Origin: a virus
DNA length: 39,610 bases
Reading direction: 5' to 3' (one strand)
IMG/VR virus record: IMGVR_UViG_3300032240_002138
Coordinates: 1 to 39,610 of that record
Shown here piece by piece: positions 2 to 37,582 of this stretch. Within the stretch, counting starts at the first letter, position 1; each line of letters opens with the position of its first letter. Both the position numbers and the translations under genes were made by a program. The notes beneath the pieces were generated by a model, which made no database searches, was not told where the DNA came from, and worked only from the letters and a program-made list of their open reading frames with translations.

Positions 2-2992
2 GTAAAAATGTTGGATGACCAATTCAAATTTTTGGATTTGGCGGTAAGCGTTACCACAACAGGACATGTGCCATTTGAATGGTTTCACATGTCTTCCAGA
101 TTCATTGAAGGGGCTGTTATTACTTACATGCGCCGTAATGGGAACATGGTTGCACCAAACAAACCTGTAAAATTGGAAGATGATATTGACGAGGAAGCCA
201 ACAAACGATATGAAGAAATGATGATGGATAATACGGAAAAAGATGACGATGATGCCGACGAAGGGTTTACAGGCGCATACGTTAAAAATCCAATTCCAGG
301 TCTTTATTCATGGGTATTTTCAGCGGATATTAATTCGCTATATCCCAGCACAATTAGAACGCTGAATATTTCACCAGAAACTTATATCGGACGCATTTCC
401 AATTGGGATAATATAGAATTTACAAAAGGAACATTAAAAGAAGTTAAAATCGCTGATGAAATATACCCCATTGATAAATTTAAACAGTTTATTGAAGATG
501 AAAAGATTAATATCTCATCTATTGGTGCAATGTATAAAGGTGATAAAATGGGTATTATTCCTACAATATTGGAAATGTGGTTTAAACAACGCATTGAATA
601 TCAAGAATTAATGAAACAACATGCGAAAAATGGAGAAAAGGAAAAAGAAGATTATTATTCTCGCCGTCAGCATGTCCAAAAAATATTTTTGAATTGTTTT
701 TCACCAGATACTAATGTGGTTACACCGACAGGAATTAAATCAATTACAAATTTTAAAGTCGGGGATTTGGTTTATTCGTTAAATAGAACTACCGGAAAGA
801 CTGAAATAAAACCCGTAACACGAGTATATGAATATGATTATGAAGGTGATATGGTTCATTTCAATTCTGCTCATTGTGATTTTATTACCACCCCAAATCA
901 TAAATTTTGGGTAGCAAAATTAAAAAATAATAAATATCAAAATTTTGATTGGGAATTTTCAGGAAATATTATATCTGATAAAAAACGAAGAAAATTTCCT
1001 AAAATTGATACATTTCCCGAAACAAAAAAAGTATCAAAAATATATTTGATGGATTATGCCAAACGGTTTGGTATGGACTACGTTATTAAAAATAATAAGA
1101 TTAGAATTAAACGACAAAATGACTCCAATCAACAAAGACATACTTGTTTTGTTCCAAACGAATACGATATTAATGATTGGTTGGAATTTATTGGATGGTA
1201 TGTATCAGAAGGGTCGTTATACACCACCACCTCCAAAAAATATAAAACTTGTAGTAGAGGGATTAGTTATGGAATAACTCTTTCTCAGCAAAATTATAGA
1301 GATGAAATACGAAATCTGTTGAATAAAATGCAAATACCTTTTAGTGAAAATGAAAAAGAATTTAAAATATCAAACGATATTATTTATAAAATATTAGAGA
1401 CAGAATGTGGAAAATATAGTGAGAATAAAAAAATACCAAGTTGGGTGTTTGGGTTAAATAAAGAACATTTAAAGCATTTGTATAAAACATTAATGTTAGG
1501 AGATGGGCATAAAACCCAAGAAAGATATACAACAAAAAGTGTTCAGTTAAAAAATGATTTTATTCATTTATGTTTTAATATAGGGGATGTTTATGCTTTT
1601 TTACAAAGTTCTGATGGGTGTTACAGAATACAAATAAATAAAGTTAGAGGGAAAAATCCGGTATTAAAATCCGAACATAGAAAGTTGATTCCATATAAAG
1701 GTAAAGTTTATTGTGTTGAAGTGGAAGATAATCATACTTTATTATGTGGAAGAAATGATAAATATCAGTGGTGTGGACAAAGCGTTTATGGCATTCTTGG
1801 ATTACCCACAAGTCGGTTATATTTAAAAGATAATGCAGAATCTACCACATTAACCGGACAAACTATAATTAAAACATCCGAAAAAATCGTAATTGATTAT
1901 TTTAAGAAAAAATATGCACAATATGGAAAAAATTTAGAGGACATAAAAAACATTGTTCAATACATTGATACAGATTCAATATATTCTTCTGTTAACGAAC
2001 TTGGTAAGCTTGAAGGTATCAAGGAAGAGAATATGAAAGAATATACCAAAAAGATTTGTCAAGAAATTGTAGACATTTTGAATGCCACATATCCAATAAT
2101 GGTAAAACGATTATTTAATTCAGATTTTAATAAAATTAAAATAGCACCGGACACAATTAGTGCTACAGCGTTTTGGAAAAAGAAAAAAGCATATGCGTTA
2201 AACCAAACATATGACATGGGTAAAGGTAAAGATGTGAACAAGATTAAAGTGGTTGGATTAAGTAGTGTTCGTTCCGATTTCCCAATCAAATTTAAAGAGT
2301 TCTATGAAAAGTTCTTGAAAGATATTTTATATCGTGCAGGTGCTGAAAAGATTAGCGATTCTGTATTAGATTTGAAAACTTTATTGAAAAGTTGCACCAT
2401 TTATGAATTGGCAAAAAACACAGGTGTTAAATTTGCTAGTGAAAAGAAAGGAATAAATTTTAATCCAAAAAATCGCAATCGATTTTATGTTGAAAAGGGG
2501 GCGACGGCACAATGTAAAGCAGCATTGATGTATAATGATTTATTGATTAAATTTGGAGTGCAGCACACCGTTGAACCAATTTACAGTGGACAAAAAATCA
2601 AATACGTATATTTGAAAAATAATGAATATGGATTGGAAGCATTGGCATTTAAAGGTGATGGAACAGACCCAAAAGAAATCATGGAGTTTATTAATATTTA
2701 TTGTGATAAAACCAAGATGTATGAATCAGTTTTGGAAAACAAAGTCGAAGACTTTTTCAATATTTTGAAATGGAAAATGCCTACTCACGAAGCAAAGAAA
2801 ATGGTTGAATTTTTTAATGCAGAGAATAAAATTGAGAATTATGAAACACTTGTCAAAACAAAAAAAATTGCTACCGAAGTAGAAGATACATCGGAATTGT
2901 TTGACATTCGTATTAAGCCAAAAACCCCCACAAAAAAAATCAAAGAAAAAAAGCCTATGATGACTATCAACAAAACCCATAAATTGTTCTAA
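2..2992 (+). CDS. DNA polymerase, family B (T4 gp43-like), 5' truncated, contains an intein
   Basis: Replicative DNA polymerase. The reading frame is open to the left edge, so the 3'-5' exonuclease domain lies outside the window. Numbered from the first in-window Met (base 8, 994 residues to the stop), motif A is DINSLYPST near residue 108, motif B is KIFLN/SVYG interrupted by an intein after residue 229, and motif C is YIDTDSIY near residue 655. The later FWKKKKAYAL stretch matches the conserved KKKY region of the palm/thumb. The tail is lysine- and proline-rich and ends in a short hydrophobic peptide, as expected for a clamp-binding C-terminus. The sliding clamp and clamp loader follow within 3 kb, which supports a T4-type replisome. 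About 632 residues remain in the window after intein removal. Family assignment is very secure; the clamp-binding tail is inference. Confidence 0.97.
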   Translation, partial: VKMLDDQFKFLDLAVSVTTTGHVPFEWFHMSSRFIEGAVITYMRRNGNMVAPNKPVKLEDDIDEEANKRYEEMMMDNTEKDDDDADEGFTGAYVKNPIPGLYSWVFSADINSLYPSTIRTLNISPETYIGRISNWDNIEFTKGTLKEVKIADEIYPIDKFKQFIEDEKINISSIGAMYKGDKMGIIPTILEMWFKQRIEYQELMKQHAKNGEKEKEDYYSRRQHVQKIFLNCFSPDTNVVTPTGIKSITNFKVGDLVYSLNRTTGKTEIKPVTRVYEYDYEGDMVHFNSAHCDFITTPNHKFWVAKLKNNKYQNFDWEFSGNIISDKKRRKFPKIDTFPETKKVSKIYLMDYAKRFGMDYVIKNNKIRIKRQNDSNQQRHTCFVPNEYDINDWLEFIGWYVSEGSLYTTTSKKYKTCSRGISYGITLSQQNYRDEIRNLLNKMQIPFSENEKEFKISNDIIYKILETECGKYSENKKIPSWVFGLNKEHLKHLYKTLMLGDGHKTQERYTTKSVQLKNDFIHLCFNIGDVYAFLQSSDGCYRIQINKVRGKNPVLKSEHRKLIPYKGKVYCVEVEDNHTLLCGRNDKYQWCGQSVYGILGLPTSRLYLKDNAESTTLTGQTIIKTSEKIVIDYFKKKYAQYGKNLEDIKNIVQYIDTDSIYSSVNELGKLEGIKEENMKEYTKKICQEIVDILNATYPIMVKRLFNSDFNKIKIAPDTISATAFWKKKKAYALNQTYDMGKGKDVNKIKVVGLSSVRSDFPIKFKEFYEKFLKDILYRAGAEKISDSVLDLKTLLKSCTIYELAKNTGVKFASEKKGINFNPKNRNRFYVEKGATAQCKAALMYNDLLIKFGVQHTVEPIYSGQKIKYVYLKNNEYGLEALAFKGDGTDPKEIMEFINIYCDKTKMYESVLENKVEDFFNILKWKMPTHEAKKMVEFFNAENKIENYETLVKTKKIATEVEDTSELFDIRIKPKTPTKKIKEKKPMMTINKTHKLF
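695..1780 (+). other. Intein with LAGLIDADG homing endonuclease domain, inside polymerase motif B
   Basis: A 362-residue in-frame insertion splits the polymerase active-site motif KIFLN|SVYG. It starts with Cys (polymerase residue 230, block A CFSPDTNVVTPTG), has block B TPNH at residues 295-298, two LAGLIDADG-type helices (FIGWYVSEGS at 394-403 and LMLGDG at 495-500), and a block F stretch VEVEDNHTLLC before the end. It ends WCGQ and the next extein residue is Ser. Thus the terminal residue is Gln instead of Asn and the usual penultimate His is Gly. Such variants occur in some inteins and can still splice. The boundaries are fixed by the restored KxxxNSxYG motif. The endonuclease appears intact because both acidic residues (E401, D499) are present. 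Confidence 0.93.
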
Positions 2993-10372: not shown

Positions 10373-11509
10373 ATGAATGAATTAGATACCAATAAAACTG
10401 TATATGAAGTCTTAGATTATCTAAAAGACCAAACAGTTAATAGTATATATAAAAATCATATTTTTTTATGGGGAGGATTCTTGAGAGATAAAGTCTTAAA
10501 CATAACCCCGTTGGACATTGATATAATTATAGTTATACCAAAATCTTTAATCGGCAATCATATGATTAGTTTACAGGAACTTTTTAATGAAGATTGTTTC
10601 ATAAACACTTCCCCATCAACAGTTCAAGTTGAAAAATTTGGCATAAAATTTGACATAAGATTATTAGAAAACACAAACGACGAATCGCCAGTAGAAATTG
10701 TTAAAAGAAGTATATTATACAACACCGATTTCAATATTAATACAATGTGTATGGATATTTGTAAAACTGCAATATTAGACTTTACTCATCAGGCGATGAA
10801 TGACTTAAATAATAAAATTCTCAATATAAATAGACATATTGGTCTTGATATATTTTCACAATATCCTATTAGAATATATAGACTCATACGCATTAGTTGT
10901 ACGTTAGATATGAAAATTCCATTGTCATTATTACGTTATATAAAAAATAATGCATATATTATGAATTTTACGGAAAGAAAACAAGTAGATTCGGAGTTTC
11001 AGAAAATACTTGCATCTACCAATGCTGAAAGGGGAATTAGATTATTGAAATTTTTTGGTATTGATGTGGGTGATGTAAAAAATAATCTAATCACACTTAA
11101 TAAGGGATGGTATGAAATTGAGCCAGGAGTTGTGCCACATAGAGTAATATTAGAAAATAATCAGCGTTGGTCTGAAAGTAAAGCACAAATTTGTATTCAT
11201 CCCGAAGTATTTGCATTAAGATTTGAAATGATAAAGAGTGAGCATAATGATAAAAATATATTTGAGTATTTTTACGATAATAATGAAGGTGATATAAAAT
11301 TTGTGAATATTACACAAGGTCATAATATTGTGATTATTGACACAATTGGAAAAAAATCCATCACAATATTGACTCCAATTTTTATACCTGCCAAATTAGG
11401 AAAATCAACGGATGTCAGAGAACTAGGTCATTGTTTTAAACGTTTTTGGGTATTTACAAATAGGGGAATGCAGGAAATACCAATTAAGGACATATCTTAT
11501 ATTTTATGA
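10373..11509 (+). CDS. CCA-adding/poly(A) polymerase-type nucleotidyltransferase head fused to the cluster's accessory domain
   Basis: 378 residues. Residues about 20-230 match the class II CCA-adding enzyme and poly(A) polymerase head and neck: GGFLRDKVL at 34-42, catalytic LDID at 47-50 (DxD), third acidic residue in KFDIRLLE (D94), TDFNINTM at 118-125 corresponding to rDFTINAM, and YPIRIYRLIRIS at 164-175 corresponding to DPLRxLRaxRFA. The usual long body and tail RNA-binding domains are missing. Instead residues about 245-378 carry the accessory domain found in three neighbouring glycan proteins (GWYEIE, RWSES, IFIPAKL, DVRELG at 347-352). The catalytic residues look intact. Whether it acts on RNA or on a glycan-linked substrate is unknown; the fusion and the position within the glycosylation operon favour the latter. 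It overlaps the next gene by ATGA. Confidence 0.8.
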   Translation: MNELDTNKTVYEVLDYLKDQTVNSIYKNHIFLWGGFLRDKVLNITPLDIDIIIVIPKSLIGNHMISLQELFNEDCFINTSPSTVQVEKFGIKFDIRLLENTNDESPVEIVKRSILYNTDFNINTMCMDICKTAILDFTHQAMNDLNNKILNINRHIGLDIFSQYPIRIYRLIRISCTLDMKIPLSLLRYIKNNAYIMNFTERKQVDSEFQKILASTNAERGIRLLKFFGIDVGDVKNNLITLNKGWYEIEPGVVPHRVILENNQRWSESKAQICIHPEVFALRFEMIKSEHNDKNIFEYFYDNNEGDIKFVNITQGHNIVIIDTIGKKSITILTPIFIPAKLGKSTDVRELGHCFKRFWVFTNRGMQEIPIKDISYIL

Positions 11510-29219: not shown

Positions 29220-29648
29220 TTAATATTTAGATAATAAATTGTGAAAAATTATATCAGCCCACAATTCCGAATTTTTTGTAACAACTATACAATTTGCATT
29301 TTTAGGAGGTTCAAAAATTTTATCAGTATCTTGGTGTTTGGATTCTTTAATGGTATTCACCCAAACTGTATAATCTGGATTGAATATGTCACGCATTTTT
29401 TGTAATGGTGCAATAAAATCCACAACTACATAATCTTTCATTGATTGATTTGCCATATTTGCCATGCGGTTTGCTTGGCGAATCCTACCCACCTCACTAA
29501 AATCCCAATCTTGGTGAACATTTCTTACAATATCAGCATTAAACCATTCCACAGATTTACCAGATTGTTCTATTAAAAAAACAAGACTTCTGGCAAGGGT
29601 TGTCTTACCAGAAGTTGATAATCCCATGATTAGTATTTTTATTGGCAT
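29220..29648 (-). CDS. Adenylylsulfate (APS) kinase-like protein
   Basis: 142 residues. P-loop GLSTSGKTTLA at 9-19, then WFNADIVRNVHQDWDFSEVG (35-54), matching the APS-kinase DGDNVRhGLnxDLgFsxxdR pattern, followed by RQANRMANMA, VVVDFIAPLQKMRDIF (iSPyxxxRxxxR) and IFEPPKNANCIVV (YExPxxPelvl). APS kinase phosphorylates adenylylsulfate to PAPS, the donor for sulfotransferases such as the one at 12791. It is shorter than cellular CysC (about 200 residues), and the RDPKGLYKKA loop is not evident, so another small-molecule kinase activity is possible. It is coupled to the upstream phosphoesterase gene by a TAATG junction. Confidence 0.72.
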   Translation of the reverse strand: MPIKILIMGLSTSGKTTLARSLVFLIEQSGKSVEWFNADIVRNVHQDWDFSEVGRIRQANRMANMANQSMKDYVVVDFIAPLQKMRDIFNPDYTVWVNTIKESKHQDTDKIFEPPKNANCIVVTKNSELWADIIFHNLLSKY

Positions 29649-30415
29649 TACAAGTCTATATAATTCTTAATGGTCAACTTACCATTTTGAATTAACAAAT
29701 ATTGTGCTAGATGACAATCAATATCTAAATTATCACAGGTGGTAAAATCCAAATTACCATCAAGTTTATGATTTAGAATTGTTGGATGAGGAGTGTGACC
29801 AACAATTTGTTTGATTCCGTCAATTGGCTCGAATTCACAATCAAAATCTTGCCACGTAATTCCACCAATATTTTGTCTTCCACCACGAGCAGCACCAGCA
29901 TTGAATAGCCAATGACAACCACCCGCTTCAAGTGTTCGTTCCCCGAAACGAATTTGTTCGTTTAGCCAATTCGTGATGTTCTCCTTATCAATTTTCACCA
30001 TAGGATTAATATGATAAGTATTGATTCCAGCATGACTACATAGAAAATCATCAATCCAGATATACCATTTGAATTTGGCACGAATGGAAGGAAGCAAGTT
30101 ATTCAAACAATCTATAATGAACGTATCTTTACTTGGTGTATAGCCACTACAAATGGCATATCTGTTATCGTAAAGATAGTGAACATCGTGATTACCAATA
30201 CAGGTGTAGAAATTGTTTTTAAATACCCACTTTTTCAAAAAATTACAAGTCTTTTCAAGGTCATATTCGCTGTTATGAGTGAAACTATCAAACCAATCAC
30301 CAAGACACACTGCAATATCATAATTCTCGTTTTTGAGAATATATTCAACACGGTCAATTTCTTGATGCGGGTCACTAAAGACCAAAATCGTTTTTTTATC
30401 GCTATTAATTTGCAT
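29648..30415 (-). CDS. Calcineurin-like metallophosphoesterase (PPP-like)
   Basis: 255 residues. Metal-binding motifs in order: FSDPHQEID (DxH) near residue 13, LGDWFD (GDxxD) near 39, GNHD near 73, a histidine in CSHAGINT near 130, and VGHTPH (GHxxxH-type) near 215. The order and the HAG motif fit the PPP/serine-threonine phosphatase-like branch; related phage enzymes act on phosphoproteins, nucleotides or RNA ends. All metal ligands appear present. It is transcribed from a leaderless promoter whose boxes lie inside the preceding small gene, and it overlaps the APS-kinase-like gene. Confidence 0.87.
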   Translation of the reverse strand: MQINSDKKTILVFSDPHQEIDRVEYILKNENYDIAVCLGDWFDSFTHNSEYDLEKTCNFLKKWVFKNNFYTCIGNHDVHYLYDNRYAICSGYTPSKDTFIIDCLNNLLPSIRAKFKWYIWIDDFLCSHAGINTYHINPMVKIDKENITNWLNEQIRFGERTLEAGGCHWLFNAGAARGGRQNIGGITWQDFDCEFEPIDGIKQIVGHTPHPTILNHKLDGNLDFTTCDNLDIDCHLAQYLLIQNGKLTIKNYIDL

Positions 30416-30421
30416 CTTGTT

Positions 30422-30450
30422 ACTATAAACTTATTTTACGTCGGAGTCAA
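30422..30450 (-). promoter_or_regulatory. Early leaderless promoter embedded in an upstream gene
   Basis: Minus strand: TTGACT (30445-30450), 17-base spacer, TATAGT (30422-30427), 6 bases to the ATG at 30415. The -35 box lies within the last codons of the 48-residue gene at 30431-30577. Confidence 0.75.
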
Positions 30451-30577
30451 GCTTTTTCTTATTTTTCTTGGCTTCATTCTTTTTCCAAAAATCCCAACCG
30501 TCGCTCCATTTTTTCAAGTCACGGCCTTTTTCTGGCTTCTTGCCCTTACCATATTGTTTTTGTGGTTGATTATTCAT
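30431..30577 (-). CDS. Small basic protein (48 aa)
   Basis: Reads MNNQPQKQYGKGKKPEKG, then DLKKWSDGWDFWKKNEAKKN, ending LDSDVK. It is strongly basic with three tryptophans. It is too short for most gene callers but is supported by an ATGA overlap with the upstream kinase gene (30574-30577), the same coupling used throughout this genome. No family is recognised; nucleic-acid binding is a guess from charge. Confidence 0.65.
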   Translation of the reverse strand: MNNQPQKQYGKGKKPEKGRDLKKWSDGWDFWKKNEAKKNKKKLDSDVK

Positions 30578-31044
30578 ACCAAATGAATTTCCTTAAATCC
30601 CTCTCCCTCGGTAGGGCGGATATATTTTGCCAACATTTTATCCACCACAAATTCAGGAACAACCCTACCCCCACTAGCACCACGCTTGGCTTGATTAGCC
30701 ATTAATTGTGCCTTAGTTCGTTCAAAAACATAAGCAATTGCATCAACATCATATTTACGAGCAGCGTCTAAATAATCTCTGCGTTCCTTTGGATTCAACG
30801 ATGTTGCATCAATCATAACTGATTTGCCATTTTTTAAATTTTTATCCACTTCATGTTTAATTATACCAAATACTTGACCATTTACATGCTGTGAACTTTC
30901 ATCACCAGTTAAATTTTTTCGTATTTGGTCACTGCTTAAATAAATGGTAGTCGGATAATCTTTGAGATATTTGGTTGCAAATGTTGATTTTCCAGCACCG
31001 CTGCAACCAATCAATATATTTAAAGTTTGTTTGTCATTGTCCAT
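30574..31044 (-). CDS. Polynucleotide 5'-kinase-like P-loop kinase
   Basis: 156 residues. The layout matches the kinase half of T4 polynucleotide kinase: LIGCSGAGKSTFA (P-loop near residue 11-23), YLSSDQIRKNLTGD corresponding to the INRDDYRQS segment, VMIDATSLNPKERRDYLDAA corresponding to sDTNLNPxRR, and AYVFERTKAQLMANQAKRG with the lid arginines. The phosphatase domain of T4 Pnkp is absent; a separate HAD phosphatase gene lies at 32057. The probable reaction is ATP-dependent phosphorylation of RNA or DNA 5'-OH ends, in an RNA-repair role. It has a leaderless TTGACA promoter. Confidence 0.83.
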   Translation of the reverse strand: MDNDKQTLNILIGCSGAGKSTFATKYLKDYPTTIYLSSDQIRKNLTGDESSQHVNGQVFGIIKHEVDKNLKNGKSVMIDATSLNPKERRDYLDAARKYDVDAIAYVFERTKAQLMANQAKRGASGGRVVPEFVVDKMLAKYIRPTEGEGFKEIHLV

Positions 31045-31050
31045 TTAATA

Positions 31051-31078
31051 ATATTATCATAATATCTTAAAATGTCAA
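31051..31078 (-). promoter_or_regulatory. Early leaderless promoter of the kinase gene
   Basis: Minus strand: perfect TTGACA (31073-31078), 16-base spacer, TAATAT (31051-31056), 6 bases to the ATG at 31044. Confidence 0.8.
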
Positions 31079-31117
31079 GATGTTTTTGATTTTTATGACG
31101 TTTTATTCTATAACATA

Positions 31118-31127
31118 CTATTTATTA
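31118..31127 (+). promoter_or_regulatory. Possible late motif (CTATTTATTA)
   Basis: Two mismatches to ATATTTATAT, 22 bases upstream of the ATG at 31150. Weak by itself. Confidence 0.25.
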
Positions 31128-31149
31128 ATATGAAAGAGAATAATAGTAT

Positions 31150-31317
31150 ATGGGAAGAAAAAAAATCAACAGAACTAGAGAAGAACTCCTCGTCGCCCAA
31201 CGAATTAGAGCAAAAAGATACTACCAACGCCATAGGGACAGACTTAATGATGAATCAATGCGTCGATATTGGAATAATAAGCGGAATATACAAGATAATA
31301 AACAAAATCAACGGTAA
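31150..31317 (+). CDS. Small basic DNA-binding-like protein (55 aa), overlaps the GIY-YIG gene in another frame
   Basis: Starts MGRKKINRTREELLVAQRIR, then AKRYYQRHRDRLNDESMRRY, ending NKQNQR. The composition (KxxRTxEEL, YYQRHRDRLN) is like short basic proteins found next to homing endonucleases in large phages and resembles a basic-helix DNA-binding segment. It is read in a different frame from the longer ORF that begins at 31130; the amino-acid pattern here is far more protein-like than the N-terminal 40 residues of that ORF. An AAAGAG sequence lies about 12 bases upstream. Confidence 0.6.
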   Translation: MGRKKINRTREELLVAQRIRAKRYYQRHRDRLNDESMRRYWNNKRNIQDNKQNQR

Positions 31318-32065
31318 ATATTATGTTGGTAGTAGTATTAATTTAAATATTGGGTCAGATTGTAGATTAAAGACACATGCTAGATATCTAAAATCAAACA
31401 GGCATAAAAATGATTATCTTCAAAATGCTTGGAATAAATATGGAAAAAATGCATTTGAATTTGTAGTGGTTGAAATTGTAGACCCCGTTAAAGAAAAACT
31501 GTTGATGGTTGAGCAGAAATATTTAGATATTGCAAAAAATGAACCAAATAAAACATATAATTTGTGTTTCATAGCATCTGGTGCTGGAGAATTAAGTGAA
31601 TATAGTAAAAAGAAAAAAAGTGATTCATTAAAACGCTCATACAAAAATAATCCAAAATTAATAGAAAATCATATTAATTTCATGAAAGCATATTTTTCCG
31701 ACCCAAAAAATAAAGAATATTTAAAGACAGAAAAATATAGAGAAAGTTTGAGAGTTGGTCAAAAATTAAGACATGCAAATGTGACACAAAAGAAAAAACA
31801 TATAGAAATAATGAATTCTGAACGAGTGAAGAAAAAAATTAGTGACGGGGTATTAAAAAAATATAAAGAATGTCCCGAATTAAAGAAAAAAATTGGAGAA
31901 AGTAAAAAAAGTAAAACAGTATATACATTTAAAAATGTTAACACAAATGAGGTTTTTACAGGAACACAATATAATTTTCGTGCAAAATACAATTTGAATA
32001 AAAATAGTATTAGTAATCTTATTAAAAAAAGAAATAATTCATTACATGGATGGATATTACTTTAA
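31247..32065 (+). CDS. GIY-YIG homing endonuclease
   Basis: 272 residues from the ATG at 31247, which has a good Shine-Dalgarno AGGGA 8 bases upstream. The frame is open back to 31130, but those residues are an out-of-frame reading of the 55-residue gene. GIY-YIG catalytic core: SGIYKIINKINGKYYVGSS, then LKTHARYLKSNRHKN with the arginine and histidine region, and a C-terminal glutamate (VEQKYLD). After this come lysine-rich modular repeats and a C-terminal NUMOD-type DNA-binding segment (NLNKNSISNLIKKRN then HGWILL). It is the only plus-strand pair in a long minus-strand block, consistent with a mobile intruder. Its end overlaps a convergent gene by 9 bases. Confidence 0.85.
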   Translation: MMNQCVDIGIISGIYKIINKINGKYYVGSSINLNIGSDCRLKTHARYLKSNRHKNDYLQNAWNKYGKNAFEFVVVEIVDPVKEKLLMVEQKYLDIAKNEPNKTYNLCFIASGAGELSEYSKKKKSDSLKRSYKNNPKLIENHINFMKAYFSDPKNKEYLKTEKYRESLRVGQKLRHANVTQKKKHIEIMNSERVKKKISDGVLKKYKECPELKKKIGESKKSKTVYTFKNVNTNEVFTGTQYNFRAKYNLNKNSISNLIKKRNNSLHGWILL

Positions 32066-32521
32066 TATTTCTATGACACGTTTTACATTATTTTCTGTCA
32101 ACCCATCATCTGCATTGGTTTGCACAAATTCTATAGGATATGTTTCTGGAAAAAAGAATTCCACATCATCCACAATCGCAAATTTAGTAACATCGGAATG
32201 TCGGGTTAACCATTCATTCACTTCATTTTCACGATTTCTTGGAGAAATACTTTTGGTAACATCAATGATTTTTTCACCATATTGAAAACCTTTTTCTTTC
32301 AAGAACTTTTTTAAATCCGGCAACGAATGATGGTATCTCCATGCCGATGAAATAACAACGTCACAATTTGTTTGTTCAACGATTGCATTTAATCGCCTAA
32401 CCAATGTTTCAGATAAATGGACACTAGGATTTGAATAATCAATATCCTCGGCAGCAACCAAAAACCAATGTTTTCGATTGTTTAAAACTCCATCAAAATC
32501 TATGAATAAAATTTTACTCAT
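32057..32521 (-). CDS. HAD-superfamily phosphatase (HAD_SAK-like)
   Basis: 154 residues. Motif I is FIDFDGVLNN at 6-15 (DxDGVLxN), motif II is VVISSAWRYHH near residue 55, and the acidic motif IV is IVDDVEFFFP near 116. This exact combination (DFDGVLN, SSAWR, DDD/E) is the HAD domain known from Swiss-army-knife RNA repair proteins and many stand-alone phage proteins. Likely role: removal of 3'-phosphates or similar end phosphates during RNA repair, complementary to the kinase at 30574. It follows the phosphoesterase gene at 32523 with a one-base gap. Confidence 0.82.
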   Translation of the reverse strand: MSKILFIDFDGVLNNRKHWFLVAAEDIDYSNPSVHLSETLVRRLNAIVEQTNCDVVISSAWRYHHSLPDLKKFLKEKGFQYGEKIIDVTKSISPRNRENEVNEWLTRHSDVTKFAIVDDVEFFFPETYPIEFVQTNADDGLTENNVKRVIEILK

Positions 32522-32522
32522 G

Positions 32523-33071
32523 TTATTCCTGTTTACCGTGATGGTCGATTGGCTTGAATGTTTTCTTTGCCATTATTTTTGCCACTTCATCAAATGAGAG
32601 TGGTGTAAAATTATGACAGTCTACTCCACAATCAAAACTTAAACTATTCGGGTCATCTGGCAATGTTCCGTGTGAATGACCATACAAATGCCATGCGCCT
32701 CGGTGAGACTTGTTCCAAACCCTCATTGCATAGTGTGAAAGTGTAATGTCCTGTCCATTTACCTGAATTTCTCGGTATGAATCGGAATATGCATAAAACT
32801 TATCACGGAGTTTCCATGCCAACTTATCATGGTTTCCTTTGATAAATATAATTAAACCATTGAGTCTGCTCAAAATATTGGTCAAATAATAATCTTCTCC
32901 ACCAAAAGTAAAATCGCCCAAGTGATAAATTATATCATCTTTACCAACTTTATTGTTCCAATTGTTAATAATAATGTTATTCATTTCAACAGTATCATTA
33001 AAAGGGCGGTTGCAGTATTTGATAATATTTCCGTGGTGAAAATGTGTATCTGATGTAAAAAATGTATTCAT
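32523..33071 (-). CDS. Calcineurin-like metallophosphoesterase
   Basis: 182 residues. Motifs: TSDTHFHHGNII (DxH) near residue 6, HLGDFTFGG (GDxx) near 51, KGNHDKL (GNHD) near 78, LSHYAMRVW near 110 and LYGHSHG (GHxH) near 128. This compact form (SDTHFGHxNII ... GNHD ... GHxH) is common in phages and bacteria and its substrates are poorly known; a cyclic phosphodiesterase or phosphatase activity is plausible. The promoter with TATAAT 9 bases upstream makes it near-leaderless. It is co-transcribed with the HAD phosphatase gene. Confidence 0.88.
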   Translation of the reverse strand: MNTFFTSDTHFHHGNIIKYCNRPFNDTVEMNNIIINNWNNKVGKDDIIYHLGDFTFGGEDYYLTNILSRLNGLIIFIKGNHDKLAWKLRDKFYAYSDSYREIQVNGQDITLSHYAMRVWNKSHRGAWHLYGHSHGTLPDDPNSLSFDCGVDCHNFTPLSFDEVAKIMAKKTFKPIDHHGKQE

Positions 33072-33080
33072 AATGGTTGT

Positions 33081-33108
33081 ATTATATCAGATACCAAAGA
33101 AAAATCAA
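33081..33108 (-). promoter_or_regulatory. Early promoter, near-leaderless
   Basis: Minus strand: TTGATT (33103-33108), 16-base spacer, perfect TATAAT (33081-33086), 9 bases to the ATG at 33071. Confidence 0.75.
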
Positions 33109-33177
33109 GCTGTTTTTGCTACCGCTGTTCTGTATTCGCATAACACTCATCCTATGGAAACAGCAAAAATATAGGAT

Positions 33178-33654
33178 TCACTTGATTAAACTTTTTTTAT
33201 AACTCTCTAAGTAACTAATTATGTTGCGTTTACCAATAGAATTCATACTATGAACATAATATTCAGGAATATCAAGTCCTTTGTTCATGCAATATTCTAC
33301 GAGCCATTTGGCGCAATCATAGCCAGTTTTTTCTTTATATTTGGCGTAGTTTAATTTAAGGGGGTCAAGAATTTTATCTTCATCTTTTACCACGTTGAAA
33401 TAATCACGCATATGTTCAAACCCTAAGTCATGGTCGCTCCAATATTTAATTGGTAAACCATTGGATTCTATACACTTAACAAATTCATCATAGTTTCTAA
33501 CTAAAATGAATGGATAATCCGATGGAATTTTGTTATTGACATCGCAAAGATTGTCAACCTGATTTAACGTCCTCAAATCATCTAAAATTAAATAATATGT
33601 ATATTTTTCCATTTTATGGTCATTTACCAAATCGTGGTCTATATTTATATTCAT
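33178..33654 (-). CDS. Cyclic-phosphate processing receiver-domain (cREC)-like protein
   Basis: 158 residues. The core reads YLILDDLRT near residue 21, FILVRNYDEFVKCI near 49, YWSDHDLG at 71-78, TGYDCAKWLVEYC at 110-122 and YYVHSMNSIGKRNI near 132. This is the pattern of the cREC family, a receiver-like domain predicted to process cyclic phosphates in RNA repair settings. The DHDLG and HSMN motifs carry the expected active-site residues. The start at 33654 is supported by a promoter with 7 bases from TATAAT to ATG; a later Met at residue 15 is possible. It fits with the kinase, HAD and ligase genes nearby. Confidence 0.75.
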   Translation of the reverse strand: MNINIDHDLVNDHKMEKYTYYLILDDLRTLNQVDNLCDVNNKIPSDYPFILVRNYDEFVKCIESNGLPIKYWSDHDLGFEHMRDYFNVVKDEDKILDPLKLNYAKYKEKTGYDCAKWLVEYCMNKGLDIPEYYVHSMNSIGKRNIISYLESYKKSLIK

Positions 33655-33661
33655 ATGAAAG

Positions 33662-33690
33662 ATTATAACAGATAGCTAAATCGATGTCAA
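33662..33690 (-). promoter_or_regulatory. Early leaderless promoter; the -35 box contains the upstream stop codon
   Basis: Minus strand: perfect TTGACA (33685-33690), 17-base spacer, perfect TATAAT (33662-33667), 7 bases to the ATG at 33654. The TGA in TTGACA is the stop codon of the ABC-GNAT gene. Confidence 0.88.
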
Positions 33691-34796
33691 ATAAATAGTT
33701 TAGCATCCTGTTCATTGGCAGACTGTCCGATATATTCAAACGCATAACAATTTCTGGCAGATGAAAACCATCCTCGTGAATTCATACTTTCATTAATAGG
33801 ATTTCTGGATTTTCTACTATGTGTAGTCTCTTTCCATTTATCAAGATTCTTTAGGCGGTGAGCAATCATAGCTGGATGAGCAGTTTTACTAAAATATCTA
33901 CATCCATTTGCTTTGAAAACACTTCCCATAAAATCGCTCAATTTAACACCTATACCCAACCCCTGGTAATCCGGCAACACCACGGTTCTACTAGCTCTCC
34001 ACCCTTTCCTTACTACAGGGTGGGGAAAAGCCAGAATTGCAGTAAAAGCGACGGGAATCCCCTCCCATGTAGCAATGTAACATTTAGCCGATTTGTTTAA
34101 TTTTGCACTTAAATAATGATGTGGCTTGAACAAGTCCCACGCTTGATATTTACAACGGAATACTTCGAGTGAAATGTTAGGTCGGTGAAGTGACCCCCTT
34201 GGCAAAACATGAGTTTCGCCTTCGGTGGGGTTGTAAATCCAATCAGGTTGAACCCAATCAATGATATCACTATGACATGATGCCAATATAATCTTTTTAT
34301 TATGTTTCCTGATATATTTTTGAACACTATTACATGCGGATTTAGCAACATTTCTGTCAACCACACTAGTAAATTCGTCCACGAGAATAATATCATTTTT
34401 ACCCATCAGACTACGAGCCAAATCAGCACGAAATTTTTCACCATTGCTTAATGCATTATATGGTCTAATCCAAGCGGGAACAGTTCCAAATCCAACACTA
34501 CAAAGCACTTCGGAAGCTTCTTGTGGGGAGCAATCTTTGAAATTGCTAATCATTGGAATATTGTTGTCCCAACTGTGTTGGGTAATATCACCAAACTCTC
34601 TTAATAATGTAGATTTACCTGCACCACTTGAACCACAAATCAAACCGATGTTCCATTTATCAGGCAACTGTATATTGTTTTGAATGACTACCACACTTTT
34701 GTCTTCAATGGGAACATCAAACATTTTAGAAACAATGTCTGTGTATGTGTCTTTTACAACGGGCGATTCTAAAATAATTGTGTTAGATTTGGTCAT
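33687..34796 (-). CDS. ABC-type ATPase fused to a GNAT acetyltransferase domain
   Basis: 369 residues. The first 200 residues form a soluble ABC ATPase: Walker A GSSGAGKST at 55-63, signature LSNGEKFRADLARSL from 116, Walker B IILVDE at 136-141, D-loop region SVVDR and switch histidine in ASCHSDI (H175). Residues about 205-369 form a GNAT-like domain: CYIATWEGIPVAFTAILAF (strands 2-4), then SRTVVLPDYQGLGIGVKLSD with the acetyl-CoA pyrophosphate loop QGLGIG at 278-283. No membrane segment exists, so it is not a transporter. The substrate is unknown; modification of a nucleic acid or protein with ATP-driven remodelling is a guess. It overlaps the upstream gene by 14 bases. Confidence 0.82.
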   Translation of the reverse strand: MTKSNTIILESPVVKDTYTDIVSKMFDVPIEDKSVVVIQNNIQLPDKWNIGLICGSSGAGKSTLLREFGDITQHSWDNNIPMISNFKDCSPQEASEVLCSVGFGTVPAWIRPYNALSNGEKFRADLARSLMGKNDIILVDEFTSVVDRNVAKSACNSVQKYIRKHNKKIILASCHSDIIDWVQPDWIYNPTEGETHVLPRGSLHRPNISLEVFRCKYQAWDLFKPHHYLSAKLNKSAKCYIATWEGIPVAFTAILAFPHPVVRKGWRASRTVVLPDYQGLGIGVKLSDFMGSVFKANGCRYFSKTAHPAMIAHRLKNLDKWKETTHSRKSRNPINESMNSRGWFSSARNCYAFEYIGQSANEQDAKLFI

Positions 34797-35100
34797 AATG
34801 AAATAATCTTCCGCCGTGTATATTACATCTAGCAGCCAATTCTGTCAACCATTTATTATCTATATTTTTATCAAGGGCATATATAGTAGAGAATTTATAT
34901 CCACAAATATTTGATAAGTCGTTCTTTTTAAGGTCTATCCATACAATTTTACTACCATCGTTAAATTTAATATGATTACCACATTCTTCGGTAATAAGTA
35001 AAATAGTATCGTCGCTAAATATTGAATCGAGTATAATATCCTTCATGGAAAGAAATGAAGTATGAAAACTGGTAGCTACCCCTATTACATTGGCATTCAT
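34783..35100 (-). CDS. Hypothetical protein coupled to the ABC-GNAT gene
   Basis: 105 residues from the ATG at 35100 (MNANVIGVATSFHTSFLSMK). An in-frame ATG at 35109 overlaps the upstream stop and is also possible. It is alpha/beta in pattern (DDTILLITEECGNHIKF, KIVWIDLKK) with a C-terminal WLTELAARCNIHGGRLFHYD. No family is recognised. It lies one base after the phosphoesterase gene and overlaps the ABC-GNAT gene, so it may be a partner of the fusion protein. Confidence 0.65.
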   Translation of the reverse strand: MNANVIGVATSFHTSFLSMKDIILDSIFSDDTILLITEECGNHIKFNDGSKIVWIDLKKNDLSNICGYKFSTIYALDKNIDNKWLTELAARCNIHGGRLFHYDQI

Positions 35101-35101
35101 G

Positions 35102-35752
35102 TTATACATGATGGTCAACTGCAACAATTCCTTTACTATTCATGATACCACGAATTTCATCCATGTTATAAGGACGTTTCAAACCTTCCCACCCCACATC
35201 AAGAATCTTACTAGTCTTATTTTCGGCAGTAGACGGGTCAAAATTATAATGGGAGTGACCACAAAGATGCCATGCCCCATCTTTCATATAATTAAACACG
35301 CTTATTGGATAATGACCCAATATCATATATTGACCATCTACTGTGATTTCTTGATAGTTACCCAAAAATATAACATTCTTATATCGCAATGGATACACTT
35401 CAATATCATCCATATATTTACTTGCGATTTCACGCTTATAGATTTGCCATGTAGGAGCATTATGGTTTCCCCATAAAAGGTAAATGTTTTTACAGTTCAA
35501 TCGGGCAATAAATGCTTCAAATTGTTCCTCGGTGCAATTCAATGTAATATCACCAAGATGAAACAATATATCGTTAGGACGAACAATTGCATTGATTTGG
35601 GTAATTTCATCCTCGTTCATTTCTTCCACGCTATTGTAACCACGTTGCGCCCACAATGGCACAGGCCATTTTGGATTATGATTGTAATGTGTATCACTTA
35701 CAAAATAAACCTTTTGGTCATCAGTCTGCTTAAATTTTAATAACTTGTTCAT
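35102..35752 (-). CDS. Calcineurin-like metallophosphoesterase
   Basis: 216 residues from the ATG at 35752; a GTG at 35767 would add five residues. Motifs: FVSDTHYNHNPKW near residue 17, FHLGDITLN near 63, LLWGNHNAP near 91 (GNHN in place of GNHD), ILGHYPISVF near 145 and LCGHSHYNF near 162. It belongs to the same broad family as the phosphoesterase at 32523 but is clearly different in sequence, so the two are not recent duplicates. The GNHN variant keeps the metal-binding asparagine and histidine. It is in an operon with the ABC-GNAT gene. Confidence 0.86.
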   Translation of the reverse strand: MNKLLKFKQTDDQKVYFVSDTHYNHNPKWPVPLWAQRGYNSVEEMNEDEITQINAIVRPNDILFHLGDITLNCTEEQFEAFIARLNCKNIYLLWGNHNAPTWQIYKREIASKYMDDIEVYPLRYKNVIFLGNYQEITVDGQYMILGHYPISVFNYMKDGAWHLCGHSHYNFDPSTAENKTSKILDVGWEGLKRPYNMDEIRGIMNSKGIVAVDHHV

Positions 35753-35789
35753 GCTCCACTTTCCCACTCTTTCTCTTTGTATTTCAAAA

Positions 35790-36152
35790 TTATGCTTTCT
35801 TTATAGACTTCAATCCATCAGCGTATTTATTACCTTGTTCGGTGAGTCCGTATAGTGGTTCTCCGTGGGTATCATATTCTTTAACTTCAACCAAACCTTT
35901 TGCAACAAGGTCTTGAATGGTTTCACGAGTATTTTCCAGCATAATTTCATCAAACATGCGTTCGGCTTCTTCATCTGACACGGTATAATTAAGTTCTTCT
36001 TTAATCATACCAATTGCAGTTTCACGGTCAATTAAAACATTTTCATCATTAACAACGACTTTTTCAACAAAATCGGCGTTTGCTTGTGTGAAGTTTAACA
36101 AATCATCAATGCTGCCATTGAAAGGTTTTCCTAGAATATCATTTTGTTTCAT
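35790..36152 (-). CDS. Hypothetical protein with winged-helix-like C-terminus
   Basis: 120 residues starting MKQNDILGKPFNGSIDDLLN. The second half (ETIQDLVAKGLVEVKEYD then EPLYGLTEQGNKYADG) has the helix-wing pattern of winged-helix DNA-binding domains (xxLxxKGLVxxxxx...YxLTxxGxxxA). It could be a small transcription regulator, but this rests on pattern only. It has a TTGACA promoter with exactly 6 bases between the -10 box and ATG. Confidence 0.65.
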   Translation of the reverse strand: MKQNDILGKPFNGSIDDLLNFTQANADFVEKVVVNDENVLIDRETAIGMIKEELNYTVSDEEAERMFDEIMLENTRETIQDLVAKGLVEVKEYDTHGEPLYGLTEQGNKYADGLKSIKKA

Positions 36153-36158
36153 ACTTAA

Positions 36159-36186
36159 AATATATCAAATTTTATAAAAATGTCAA
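36159..36186 (-). promoter_or_regulatory. Early leaderless promoter; the -35 box contains the upstream stop codon
   Basis: Minus strand: perfect TTGACA (36181-36186), 16-base spacer, TATATT (36159-36164), 6 bases to the ATG at 36152. The TGA of TTGACA is the stop of the gene at 36183-36464. Confidence 0.85.
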
Positions 36187-36464
36187 GAATGAATTTTGGA
36201 TTGGGTGGTATCATTTTTAAGGTCTTGCATCATATCCCAATACACATCAATCATTTGTGGGGATGCTTCCATTAAAAACACATCTTTATCAATCCGACCA
36301 ATTAAATTAAATTCTTGGTCGGCATTCAATTCTTCTTTCAATGCTTGATACTCAATATCCGTGGGTTTTTCCCAATAACCACAGAAATGCAAGATGTATA
36401 AAGCACCTTCTACTTTTTCATAGGCAATTATACCGTGTGTAAATTTTTTGTTTGTATCTGTCAT
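36183..36464 (-). CDS. Hypothetical protein (93 aa)
   Basis: Starts MTDTNKKFTHGIIAYEKVEG, with a beta-rich first half (ALYILHFCGYWEKPTD) and a helical acidic second half ending DMMQDLKNDTT. No family is recognised. It lies just after the terminator of the RNA ligase gene and no consensus -35 could be found before it, so its promoter is unclear; some read-through is likely. Confidence 0.62.
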   Translation of the reverse strand: MTDTNKKFTHGIIAYEKVEGALYILHFCGYWEKPTDIEYQALKEELNADQEFNLIGRIDKDVFLMEASPQMIDVYWDMMQDLKNDTTQSKIHS

Positions 36465-36469
36465 AAATT

Positions 36470-36505
36470 TTAAAATGAAAAGTGGGTGTGTTTTACCACA
36501 CCCAC
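36470..36505 (-). terminator. Rho-independent terminator of the RNA ligase gene
   Basis: Perfect 9-bp GC-rich stem GTGGGTGTG/CACACCCAC (36482-36490 with 36497-36505), 6-base loop, followed on the minus strand by TTTTCATTTT. Confidence 0.88.
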
Positions 36506-36510
36506 GTTGA

Positions 36511-37545
36511 TTACTTTTTACTATCGTATGATTTGTTAATCACTTTGAACGATTTACCACCAGCCATTTTGATGACAACACCTTCAAATGGAACACCATT
36601 AATGGTATCAATTGCTTCATCATATTTTTTGATTAATTCAGGAGTTAAAACTACACCTTTTTCAATCATAGGCACGGTTTCAATACCTAACGCATCAGCA
36701 ACTTTTTCATAATAATGAGGGCTATCAGTGCCTTCATATTGAAGTGTGTCCAAATTGAACACATTGAACAATGCAAAACCAAGCGGTCTGGTTGCATGAG
36801 GATTGCTGGCAAAACCTTGAATATTGTTGCCATACATTTCACCACGCAATGCCAAATTAACATTATTCATGTTGCAATATGCTTTTAACTTGTCGATAAG
36901 ATTGTATTTCTTAACAACTTGTGTATACTTGTTATCGCAATCGGGTTTGAGTTCGAGACTACGAGACGTAATACCCGTAACATAATCAAGAACTTGGTCA
37001 ACTTTCTTGCAAAATACGGTCAAAGAACTACCATCAACCTTGAGGGTAACATCAACAATTTGACCAAACGGCAAATCGTCAATATTTTGGTATCTCGATT
37101 CGTCGGTTTTACCAAGACCAAATGGTAAATTACCTTTGGCATTTAAATCCTGTGGAGCAGGTGGTTCATACTTGGTAATACCGAGAATTTGAGACACCTC
37201 ATCCCCTTCTTCCCACGGAAATTGTGTTTCTACGGGGTTTCCCTTTCCATCATCAACCGCAACAGATTTCCCAATAGGAAGCAATGTAATGGATTCCACA
37301 ATACCAAAAGACCATTCCTTACGGAGTTTGATTGCTTTAACACGATTGCTCTTTGCTTTGTAGATTTTAGCCCATTCAGTATCTGGAAGCACAGTATCCG
37401 GCTGTATGAAACAAATTAATTCATTGGTTTTATACACATTTTTCTTTACAATCGATTGGTATCCTAATACACAAACAATTTCCAACAAATCTGCATTTGG
37501 ATGGGGAACAATTTTATTAATTCTCTCAATACTTGCTAATTTCAT
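36511..37545 (-). CDS. RNA ligase, DraRnl (Rnl5)-like
   Basis: 344 residues from the ATG at 37545; DraRnl has about 342. The N-terminal 120 residues look like the OB-fold domain typical of this branch (IERINKIVPHPNADLLEIV, IQPDTVLPD). The nucleotidyltransferase domain has motif I LKVDGSS with Lys169 as the AMP acceptor, motif III LRGEMYG at 233-239, motif IV FEGVVIKM at 320-327 and motif V FKVINKSY at 333-340. Enzymes of this branch seal nicks with a 3'-OH RNA end in duplex nucleic acid. All core motifs are present. It probably acts with the kinase, phosphatase and cREC-like proteins encoded in the same block. Confidence 0.92.
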   Translation of the reverse strand: MKLASIERINKIVPHPNADLLEIVCVLGYQSIVKKNVYKTNELICFIQPDTVLPDTEWAKIYKAKSNRVKAIKLRKEWSFGIVESITLLPIGKSVAVDDGKGNPVETQFPWEEGDEVSQILGITKYEPPAPQDLNAKGNLPFGLGKTDESRYQNIDDLPFGQIVDVTLKVDGSSLTVFCKKVDQVLDYVTGITSRSLELKPDCDNKYTQVVKKYNLIDKLKAYCNMNNVNLALRGEMYGNNIQGFASNPHATRPLGFALFNVFNLDTLQYEGTDSPHYYEKVADALGIETVPMIEKGVVLTPELIKKYDEAIDTINGVPFEGVVIKMAGGKSFKVINKSYDSKK

Positions 37546-37553
37546 ATACAATG

Positions 37554-37582
37554 ATTGTAATATATTTTTTTTATTTTGTCAA
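37554..37582 (-). promoter_or_regulatory. Early promoter of the RNA ligase gene, near-leaderless
   Basis: Minus strand: perfect TTGACA (37577-37582), 17-base spacer, TACAAT (37554-37559), 8 bases to the ATG at 37545. Confidence 0.82.

What the first reader, a model, noticed from the sequence alone, without database searches (positions are those of the whole stretch)
30574..37545. A dispersed RNA-repair suite
Within 7 kb of one strand are a Pnkp-type 5'-kinase (30574), a HAD phosphatase of the RNA-repair type (32057), two calcineurin-type phosphoesterases (32523, 35102; a third at 29648), a cREC-like cyclic-phosphate-processing protein (33178) and a DraRnl-type ligase (36511). Kinase, phosphatase and ligase are the steps T4 uses to repair tRNA cut by host anticodon nucleases. 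Here the T4 bifunctional Pnkp seems to be split and several alternative end-processing enzymes added, which suggests defence against more than one RNA-cutting host system. No tRNA gene was seen in the window.
Basis: partly seen in the sequence, partly recalled or inferred. Interest (0 to 1): 0.72.

Follow-up and report, generated by a model that had tools for sequence, protein, structure and literature searches.

The report
Phage RNA-end repair gene set
A T4-related virus fragment carries a set of enzymes that look able to trim, prime and re-join broken RNA; three of them (ligase, cREC, kinase) keep company in several unrelated viruses, so the set is probably a real repair kit against host RNA-cutting defences, of a kind already predicted in the literature.

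Summary
A second small kinase (29220) was missed. There is no tRNA. Relatives support a functional core. In IMG/VR contigs the ligase and the kinase lie close to cREC more often than chance (about 4 lineages seen against 0.7 expected, and 5 against 1.1, within 3 kb). In L100-L102 and L032-L033 ligase, kinase and cREC form one compact cluster. Phosphoesterase 32523 is 53% identical to a Chryseobacterium chromosomal enzyme whose gene sits near cREC and a T4-Rnl2-type RNA ligase. Three points change. The kinase resembles Clostridium Pnkp (68 bits) rather than T4 Pnkp (32 bits), so "T4 Pnkp split" is not supported. The HAD is only weakly linked, and phosphoesterase 29648 folds like protein phosphatases/ApaH, so its RNA role is unproven. 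The genes are not one operon: most start with their own sigma70-like promoter abutting the start codon (apparently leaderless). cREC-kinase-ligase neighbourhoods were predicted in 2021-2022, so this is a new variant of a known kind. Targets are unknown.

The parts
36511..37545 (-). Rnl5 (DraRnl/NgrRnl)-type RNA ligase: N-terminal OB fold plus nucleotidyltransferase (LKVDGSS, TSRSLEL, RGEMYG, EGVVIK, SFKVI motifs)
37554..37582 (-). sigma70-like promoter TTGACA-17-TACAAT, -10 ends 8 nt before the ligase ATG
36482..36505 (-). intrinsic-terminator-like hairpin just after the ligase stop
36159..36186 (-). sigma70-like promoter TTGACA-16-TATATT before the 35790-36152 small gene
35102..35767 (-). calcineurin-fold phosphoesterase, phrog_547 (paralogue of 32523)
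33687..34796 (-). ABC-ATPase/GNAT fusion protein (phrog_11143), role unknown; lies inside the block
33178..33654 (-). cREC (cyclic-phosphate processing Receiver-like) protein; DD, DHD and Lys conserved; predicted Rec-like fold
33662..33690 (-). perfect 12/12 sigma70-like promoter with TG extension, -10 ends 7 nt before the annotated cREC ATG
32523..33071 (-). calcineurin-fold phosphoesterase, phrog_547; 53% identical to a Chryseobacterium enzyme encoded near cREC and RNA ligase
33081..33108 (-). sigma70-like promoter TTGATT-16-TATAAT, -10 ends 9 nt before the 32523-33071 gene's ATG
32057..32521 (-). HAD_SAK_2 phosphatase; starts 1 nt after the 32523 gene's stop, so probably co-transcribed and coupled with it
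31130..32065 (+). GIY-YIG free-standing homing endonuclease inserted in the block, opposite strand
30574..31044 (-). polynucleotide 5'-kinase of the bacterial (CthPnkp) type; P-loop, SSDxxR, DAT and R motifs intact
31050..31078 (-). sigma70-like promoter directly before the kinase ATG
29648..30415 (-). PPP/ApaH-like metallophosphoesterase, syntenic with the kinase in relatives; RNA role not shown
30422..30450 (-). sigma70-like promoter TTGACT-17-TATAGT, -10 ends 6 nt before the 29648-30415 gene's ATG
29220..29648 (-). second small P-loop kinase (APS-kinase-like, phrog_10255); its homologue overlaps cREC in L100-L102

Best explanation
The block is a phage RNA-end healing and sealing kit. After a host (or rival) metal-independent ribonuclease cuts RNA, leaving 2',3'-cyclic phosphate and 5'-OH ends, cREC is proposed to open the cyclic phosphate. 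A phrog_547 phosphoesterase (32523, perhaps 35102) and/or the HAD would remove the remaining phosphate, the CthPnkp-type kinase would phosphorylate the 5'-OH, and the Rnl5 ligase would seal the ends. The functional core is ligase, cREC and kinase; the phosphoesterases and the HAD are exchangeable accessories; 29648 and 29220 are syntenic partners of uncertain role. Shown: gene identities, intact active sites, co-localisation in several virus lineages, and co-localisation of cREC plus the 32523 type with RNA ligases in Chryseobacterium. Inferred: every reaction step, the RNA substrate, and the anti-defence purpose.
For: Families and motifs. cREC-anchored linkage, 50 contigs: Rnl5 within 5 kb in 13 of 20 contigs (2.5 expected), kinase 14 of 25 (3.4), phrog_547 11 of 25 (3.2). 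Collapsed to lineages, within 3 kb: cREC-Rnl5 4.0 against 0.74 (p about 0.004), cREC-kinase 5.1 against 1.1 (p about 0.003). Unsupervised clustering of genes near cREC: the three commonest neighbour families are phosphoesterase (37 loci), small kinase (30), Rnl5 (26) (a fourth of unknown kind also in 26). Rnl5-anchored search: 11 of 35 loci hold cREC within the fetched flanks, among them ligase-kinase-cREC-29220-type kinase in L100-L102 and ligase-cREC-kinase in L095-L098. In 57 of 73 genomic cREC loci, nearly all Chryseobacterium, a homologue of 32523 lies about 2.8 kb downstream on the same strand, with a T4_Rnl2-type RNA ligase in 61. The same logic was proposed in PMC7824862 and PMC9503650.
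Against: No biochemistry exists for cREC in the papers read; PMC9503650 calls it experimentally uncharacterised. The four ligases closest to the window's own (L090-L093, 49-53% identity) lie without cREC or kinase in the fetched flanks, so this ligase copy may have joined the block separately. HAD linkage is weak. 29648 matches PPP protein phosphatases and ApaH, not Pnkp. phrog_547 phosphoesterases occur in 11 of 14 control genomes, so the family is not RNA-specific. Lineages are few and p-values are approximate; part of the synteny (ClpP, HNH, GMD) is plainly common descent.
Confidence: 0.72

Rival explanations
1. Counter-signalling: cREC, the phosphoesterases and the HAD mainly destroy host nucleotide or ADP-ribose-derived immune signals; the kinase and ligase are there for other reasons.
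For: PMC7824862 and PMC9503650 propose that cREC may act on cyclic ADP-ribose derivatives and link it to NAD-processing genes. Macro-like genes lie near some cREC genes (by sequence look only; Cellulophaga phage), and many cREC loci lack ligase and kinase.
Against: In this window no sirtuin, Macro, NADAR or Nudix gene was found among the proteins scanned, and ligase and kinase are the genes statistically closest to cREC.
Confidence: 0.15
2. Loose collection: common phage end-processing, nucleotide-metabolism or DNA-repair enzymes that happen to sit in one early region; the proximity is gene-rich accident plus shared descent.
For: Most of the genes have their own promoter-like site and the ligase has its own terminator-like hairpin. 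29648, ClpP, HNH and GMD are also syntenic without an RNA role. The window's ligase clade is elsewhere unlinked.
Against: Lineage-level clustering of cREC with kinase and Rnl5; tight or overlapping cREC-kinase-ligase arrangements in separate lineages; cross-domain recurrence in Chryseobacterium.
Confidence: 0.13

Closest known systems
cREC-containing phage RNA-repair neighbourhoods (PMC7824862; PMC9503650, configuration 2, Escherichia phage V5 and Proteus phage Mydo)
   Same: [quoted passage not shown] HAD Swiss-army-knife phosphatases proposed as partners
   Different: Here the ligase is Rnl5 rather than T4-like, the kinase is of the Clostridium Pnkp type, and no sirtuin, MazG, 2H or KptA gene was found in the window
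T4 Pnkp-Rnl1 tRNA repair
   Same: The same healing (5' kinase, 3' phosphatase) and sealing logic
   Different: Separate genes; a different kinase subtype, phosphatase family and ligase clade; no tRNA in this fragment
Bacterial Pnkp/Hen1 and Pnkp1-Rnl-Hen1 systems (PMC4411300)
   Same: The kinase is most similar to CthPnkp kinase; calcineurin-fold phosphatases are present
   Different: Separate polypeptides, no Hen1 methyltransferase found, an Rnl5 ligase, and 29648 is not recognisably the Pnkp phosphatase domain
Deinococcus radiodurans DRB0094 RNA ligase and DRB0098-DRB0100 end-repair operon (PMC1274311, PMC1997131, PMC11833690)
   Same: An RNA ligase (the DRB0094 family name is used for phage homologues) and, in a separate operon of the same replicon, a polynucleotide kinase/phosphatase in a proposed RNA/DNA repair context
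   Different: A macro-fold (PARG) and an HD phosphatase in place of cREC and calcineurin/HAD; a cellular, radiation-induced system
Chryseobacterium chromosomal cREC locus
   Same: cREC, a close homologue of 32523 and RNA ligases on one strand
   Different: Rnl2- and RLIG1-type ligases, RNase_T exonuclease and RNase H-like genes; no Pnkp-type kinase found

Membership tests
Rnl5 (DraRnl/NgrRnl) RNA ligases | N-terminal OB fold followed by a nucleotidyltransferase domain | tested here: met
   PHA02142 OB-fold domain at residues 5-85 and RNA_ligase at 168-338; full-length match to NgrRnl 5cot, E 3e-24
Rnl5 (DraRnl/NgrRnl) RNA ligases | Nucleotidyltransferase motifs including the KxDG lysine | tested here: met
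   KVDG, SRSLEL, GEMYG, EGVVIK and FKVI present and aligned
Rnl5 (DraRnl/NgrRnl) RNA ligases | Sealing of 3'-OH/5'-PO4 nicks in duplex RNA | not testable with these tools
   needs purified enzyme; the activity of the family is recalled from the literature, not read here
cREC | Receiver-like fold with conserved acidic pair, third Asp and Lys, no histidine-kinase partner | tested here: met
   PF20274 E 1.3e-18; invariant D25 D26, D74-H-D76, K116; fold hits are mainly Rec domains, but weak (best E 1.7e-3, TM about 0.4); no histidine kinase among the window proteins scanned
cREC | Cyclic-phosphate hydrolysis | not testable with these tools
   a prediction in PMC7824862; experimentally uncharacterised according to PMC9503650
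T4-type Pnkp | Kinase closest to T4 Pnkp and fused to its HAD phosphatase | tested here: not met
   CthPnkp 68 bits against T4 Pnkp 30-32 bits; standalone 156 aa
T4-type Rnl1 repair | Rnl1-type ligase | tested here: not met
   best PHROG is phrog_968 and best PDB match is NgrRnl
Bacterial Pnkp (CthPnkp-type) | CthPnkp-type kinase domain | tested here: met
   E 8e-18 over residues 7-155
Bacterial Pnkp (CthPnkp-type) | Pnkp-type calcineurin phosphatase | tested here: inconclusive
   29648 lies just downstream of the kinase, but profile and fold searches list PPP phosphatases and ApaH
Bacterial Pnkp (CthPnkp-type) | Kinase, phosphatase and ligase in one polypeptide, with Hen1 | tested here: not met
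   separate genes; no Hen1 found in the window
HAD_SAK_2 phosphatases | HAD motifs DxD, S/T, DD | tested here: met
   PF18143 100.9 bits; D8, D10, S58, S59, D118, D119 invariant
Sirtuin-cREC RNA repair neighbourhood (PMC9503650) | Linked sirtuin gene | tested here: not met
   none among the window proteins scanned; the contig is a fragment

The most novel reading that the evidence does not exclude
The Rnl5 ligase clade, whose natural job is unclear, works in phages as the sealing enzyme of a cREC-dependent repair pathway whose substrate is nicked structured RNA rather than the anticodon loop that T4 repairs. In this phage the pathway is built from separately promoted, leaderless early cassettes whose copy number or mix could be changed by the embedded GIY-YIG homing endonuclease (as SegB does for T6 anti-defence genes, PMC13096335).
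Probability: 0.2. Interest if true: 0.65.

Novelty: new variant of a known kind. Interest (0 to 1): 0.42.

Why it matters
It gives a compact, testable combination (Rnl5 ligase, cREC, Clostridium-type kinase, a Chryseobacterium-like phosphoesterase). That would let one reconstitution experiment settle three open points: what cREC does, what Rnl5 ligases are for, and which phosphatase serves cyclic-phosphate RNA ends. It also shows the same cREC/phosphoesterase pair near different RNA ligases in a bacterial genus and in phages.

Tried and rejected
Megablast of the window's first 25 kb against phages: no match. Single-sequence scan for the ligase in viral contigs: no relatives; an alignment was needed. 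Kinase profile A8 too diverse for a scan. 29648 as the Pnkp phosphatase domain: not supported. HAD: no usable PDB relative. One operon for the whole block: rejected because of separate promoter-like sites, a terminator-like hairpin and an opposite-strand homing endonuclease. tRNA or other known RNA: none. Contig-level counts overstate independence, so they were collapsed by lineage; after that the HAD link and, at short range, the phrog_547 link are not significant. Annotated regions of named phages with cREC or Rnl5: two have calcineurin-like genes within a few kb of cREC, and no annotated RNA ligase lies near cREC in these.
Full report
What was checked. The window is a 39.6-kb linear IMG/VR virus fragment with T4-like replication genes: family B DNA polymerase, T4-type clamp loader, helicase. 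Every gene named in the finding is there, at the stated coordinates, on the minus strand, with strong family matches and complete active-site motifs when aligned with relatives. ARAGORN finds no tRNA and Rfam nothing, but the contig is incomplete.

What each part is. The ligase matches the Rnl5 clade over its whole length (best PDB match Naegleria NgrRnl, E 3e-24). The kinase matches Clostridium thermocellum Pnkp kinase at 68 bits and T4 Pnkp at 30-32 bits, so it is not a piece of a T4-type Pnkp. cREC has the invariant DD, DHD and Lys of its family, and its predicted fold finds mainly Receiver domains, weakly. The HAD is a HAD_SAK_2 member. 32523 and 35102 are paralogous phrog_547 phosphoesterases. 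29648 is a PPP-type metallophosphoesterase whose profile and predicted fold match protein phosphatases and ApaH, so it cannot be called an RNA phosphatase on sequence.

Linkage. Starting from cREC, 88 viral loci were fetched. Clustering all genes around cREC without labels, the commonest neighbour families are phosphoesterase (37 loci), small kinase (30) and Rnl5 ligase (26). In 50 contigs searched whole, placement near cREC beat random placement for Rnl5 (13 of 20 within 5 kb, 2.5 expected), kinase (14 of 25, 3.4) and phrog_547 (11 of 25, 3.2), but hardly for HAD. Collapsed to lineages, cREC-Rnl5 and cREC-kinase remain significant (p about 0.003-0.004 at 3 kb), phrog_547 is suggestive (p about 0.02 at 10 kb) and HAD is not significant. 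Starting from Rnl5 instead, 11 of 35 loci hold cREC; the clearest arrangements are ligase-kinase-cREC-small kinase within 2.5 kb (L100-L102) and ligase-cREC-kinase followed by the 29648 homologue, ClpP and HNH (L095-L098). The window keeps the order ligase, cREC, kinase, 29648, ClpP, HNH, GMD of L033 with extra genes inserted. A caution: the ligases closest to the window's own (L090-L093) are not linked to cREC or kinase.

Cellular counterpart. In 73 genome loci found by cREC, nearly all Chryseobacterium chromosomes, a homologue of 32523 (53% identical over the whole length in C. indologenes) is present in 57 and a T4_Rnl2-type ligase in 61, all on the cREC strand within about 3 kb at the median; an RLIG1-like ligase is there in 16, plus RNase_T-type and RNase H-like genes. 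This is one genus, hence one independent case, but it ties cREC and this particular phosphoesterase to RNA ligation outside phages.

Organisation. The block is not one operon. Across 40 window genes, 10 have a sigma70-like promoter (at least 10 of 12 matches) whose -10 ends 3-9 nt before the start codon, against 0.7 expected in shuffles (maximum 6); SD-like motifs are rare (5 of 40). Six of the ten lie in the repair block: ligase, the 35790 gene, cREC (12 of 12), 32523, kinase, 29648. A terminator-like hairpin follows the ligase, and the HAD starts right after 32523. Similar abutting promoters precede the Rnl5 and 29648 homologues in several relatives. This suggests leaderless, probably early, separately expressed cassettes. 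It rests on consensus matches only.

Mechanism. The best reading is healing and sealing of broken RNA: cREC opens the cyclic end, phosphoesterase 32523 and/or the HAD clears the phosphate, the kinase adds the 5' phosphate, the ligase seals. The enzyme classes are established; the order and the substrates are inference. The Rnl5 clade is described in the literature as nick sealing on duplex RNA (recalled, not read here), so the target may not be the anticodon loop that T4 repairs. Rivals are counter-signalling (proposed for cREC in PMC7824862) and a chance collection of early genes.

Novelty. cREC, its linkage to RNA ligases, and neighbourhoods with nucleotide kinase and calcineurin-like phosphoesterase were described in PMC7824862 and PMC9503650. 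New here are the particular combination (Rnl5 with a Clostridium-type kinase and no sirtuin in view), the statistical linkage, the close cellular relative of 32523 and the promoter layout. Whether the figures or supplements of those papers, which could not be seen, already show some of these neighbourhoods is not known. It is a new variant of a known kind.

Noticed in passing
window 3043-37545, mainly 29648-37582: Apparent leaderless genes: TTGACA-N15-19-TATAAT promoters whose -10 ends 3-9 nt before the ATG in 10 of 40 genes (0.7 expected), few SD motifs; similar promoters before Rnl5 and 29648 homologues in relatives.
   Followed up: partly
window 31130-32065; L031 4179-5114; L016 10305-11099: A GIY-YIG homing endonuclease sits next to or between repair genes on the opposite strand in the window and two relatives. 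SegB of T6, also GIY-YIG, amplifies anti-defence loci (PMC13096335).
   Followed up: partly
L130-L202: Genus-wide Chryseobacterium chromosomal locus: RNase H-like gene, cREC, Rnl2-type ligase, beta-lactamase-fold protein, 32523-like phosphoesterase, RNase_T exonuclease; some with ATP-grasp and RLIG1-like ligase genes.
   Followed up: partly
window 8-2992, residues about 237-301: HINT-like domain inside the family B DNA polymerase, suggesting an intein.
   Followed up: no
L003 221-949; L094 9881-10522; L105 16071-16685; L106 550-2722: Rnl5 ligase genes of relatives look interrupted by inteins (HNFFANGMLVHN-like ends) or by a GIY-YIG element.
   Followed up: no
L014, L019, L028 about 8.8-9.5 kb: Predicted tmRNA-like genes upstream of the cREC-phrog_547 pair on the opposite strand; tRNA clusters of 13-29 genes near cREC in L003, L021, L024, L074.
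   Followed up: no
window 33687-34796; L027 10723-11798: ABC-ATPase/GNAT fusion (phrog_11143, unknown function); in L027 its homologue, in two ORFs, lies beside cREC.
   Followed up: no
window 10373-11509: Poly(A) polymerase head-domain nucleotidyltransferase (PF01743, E 1.9e-8), possibly relevant to RNA 3' ends.
   Followed up: no
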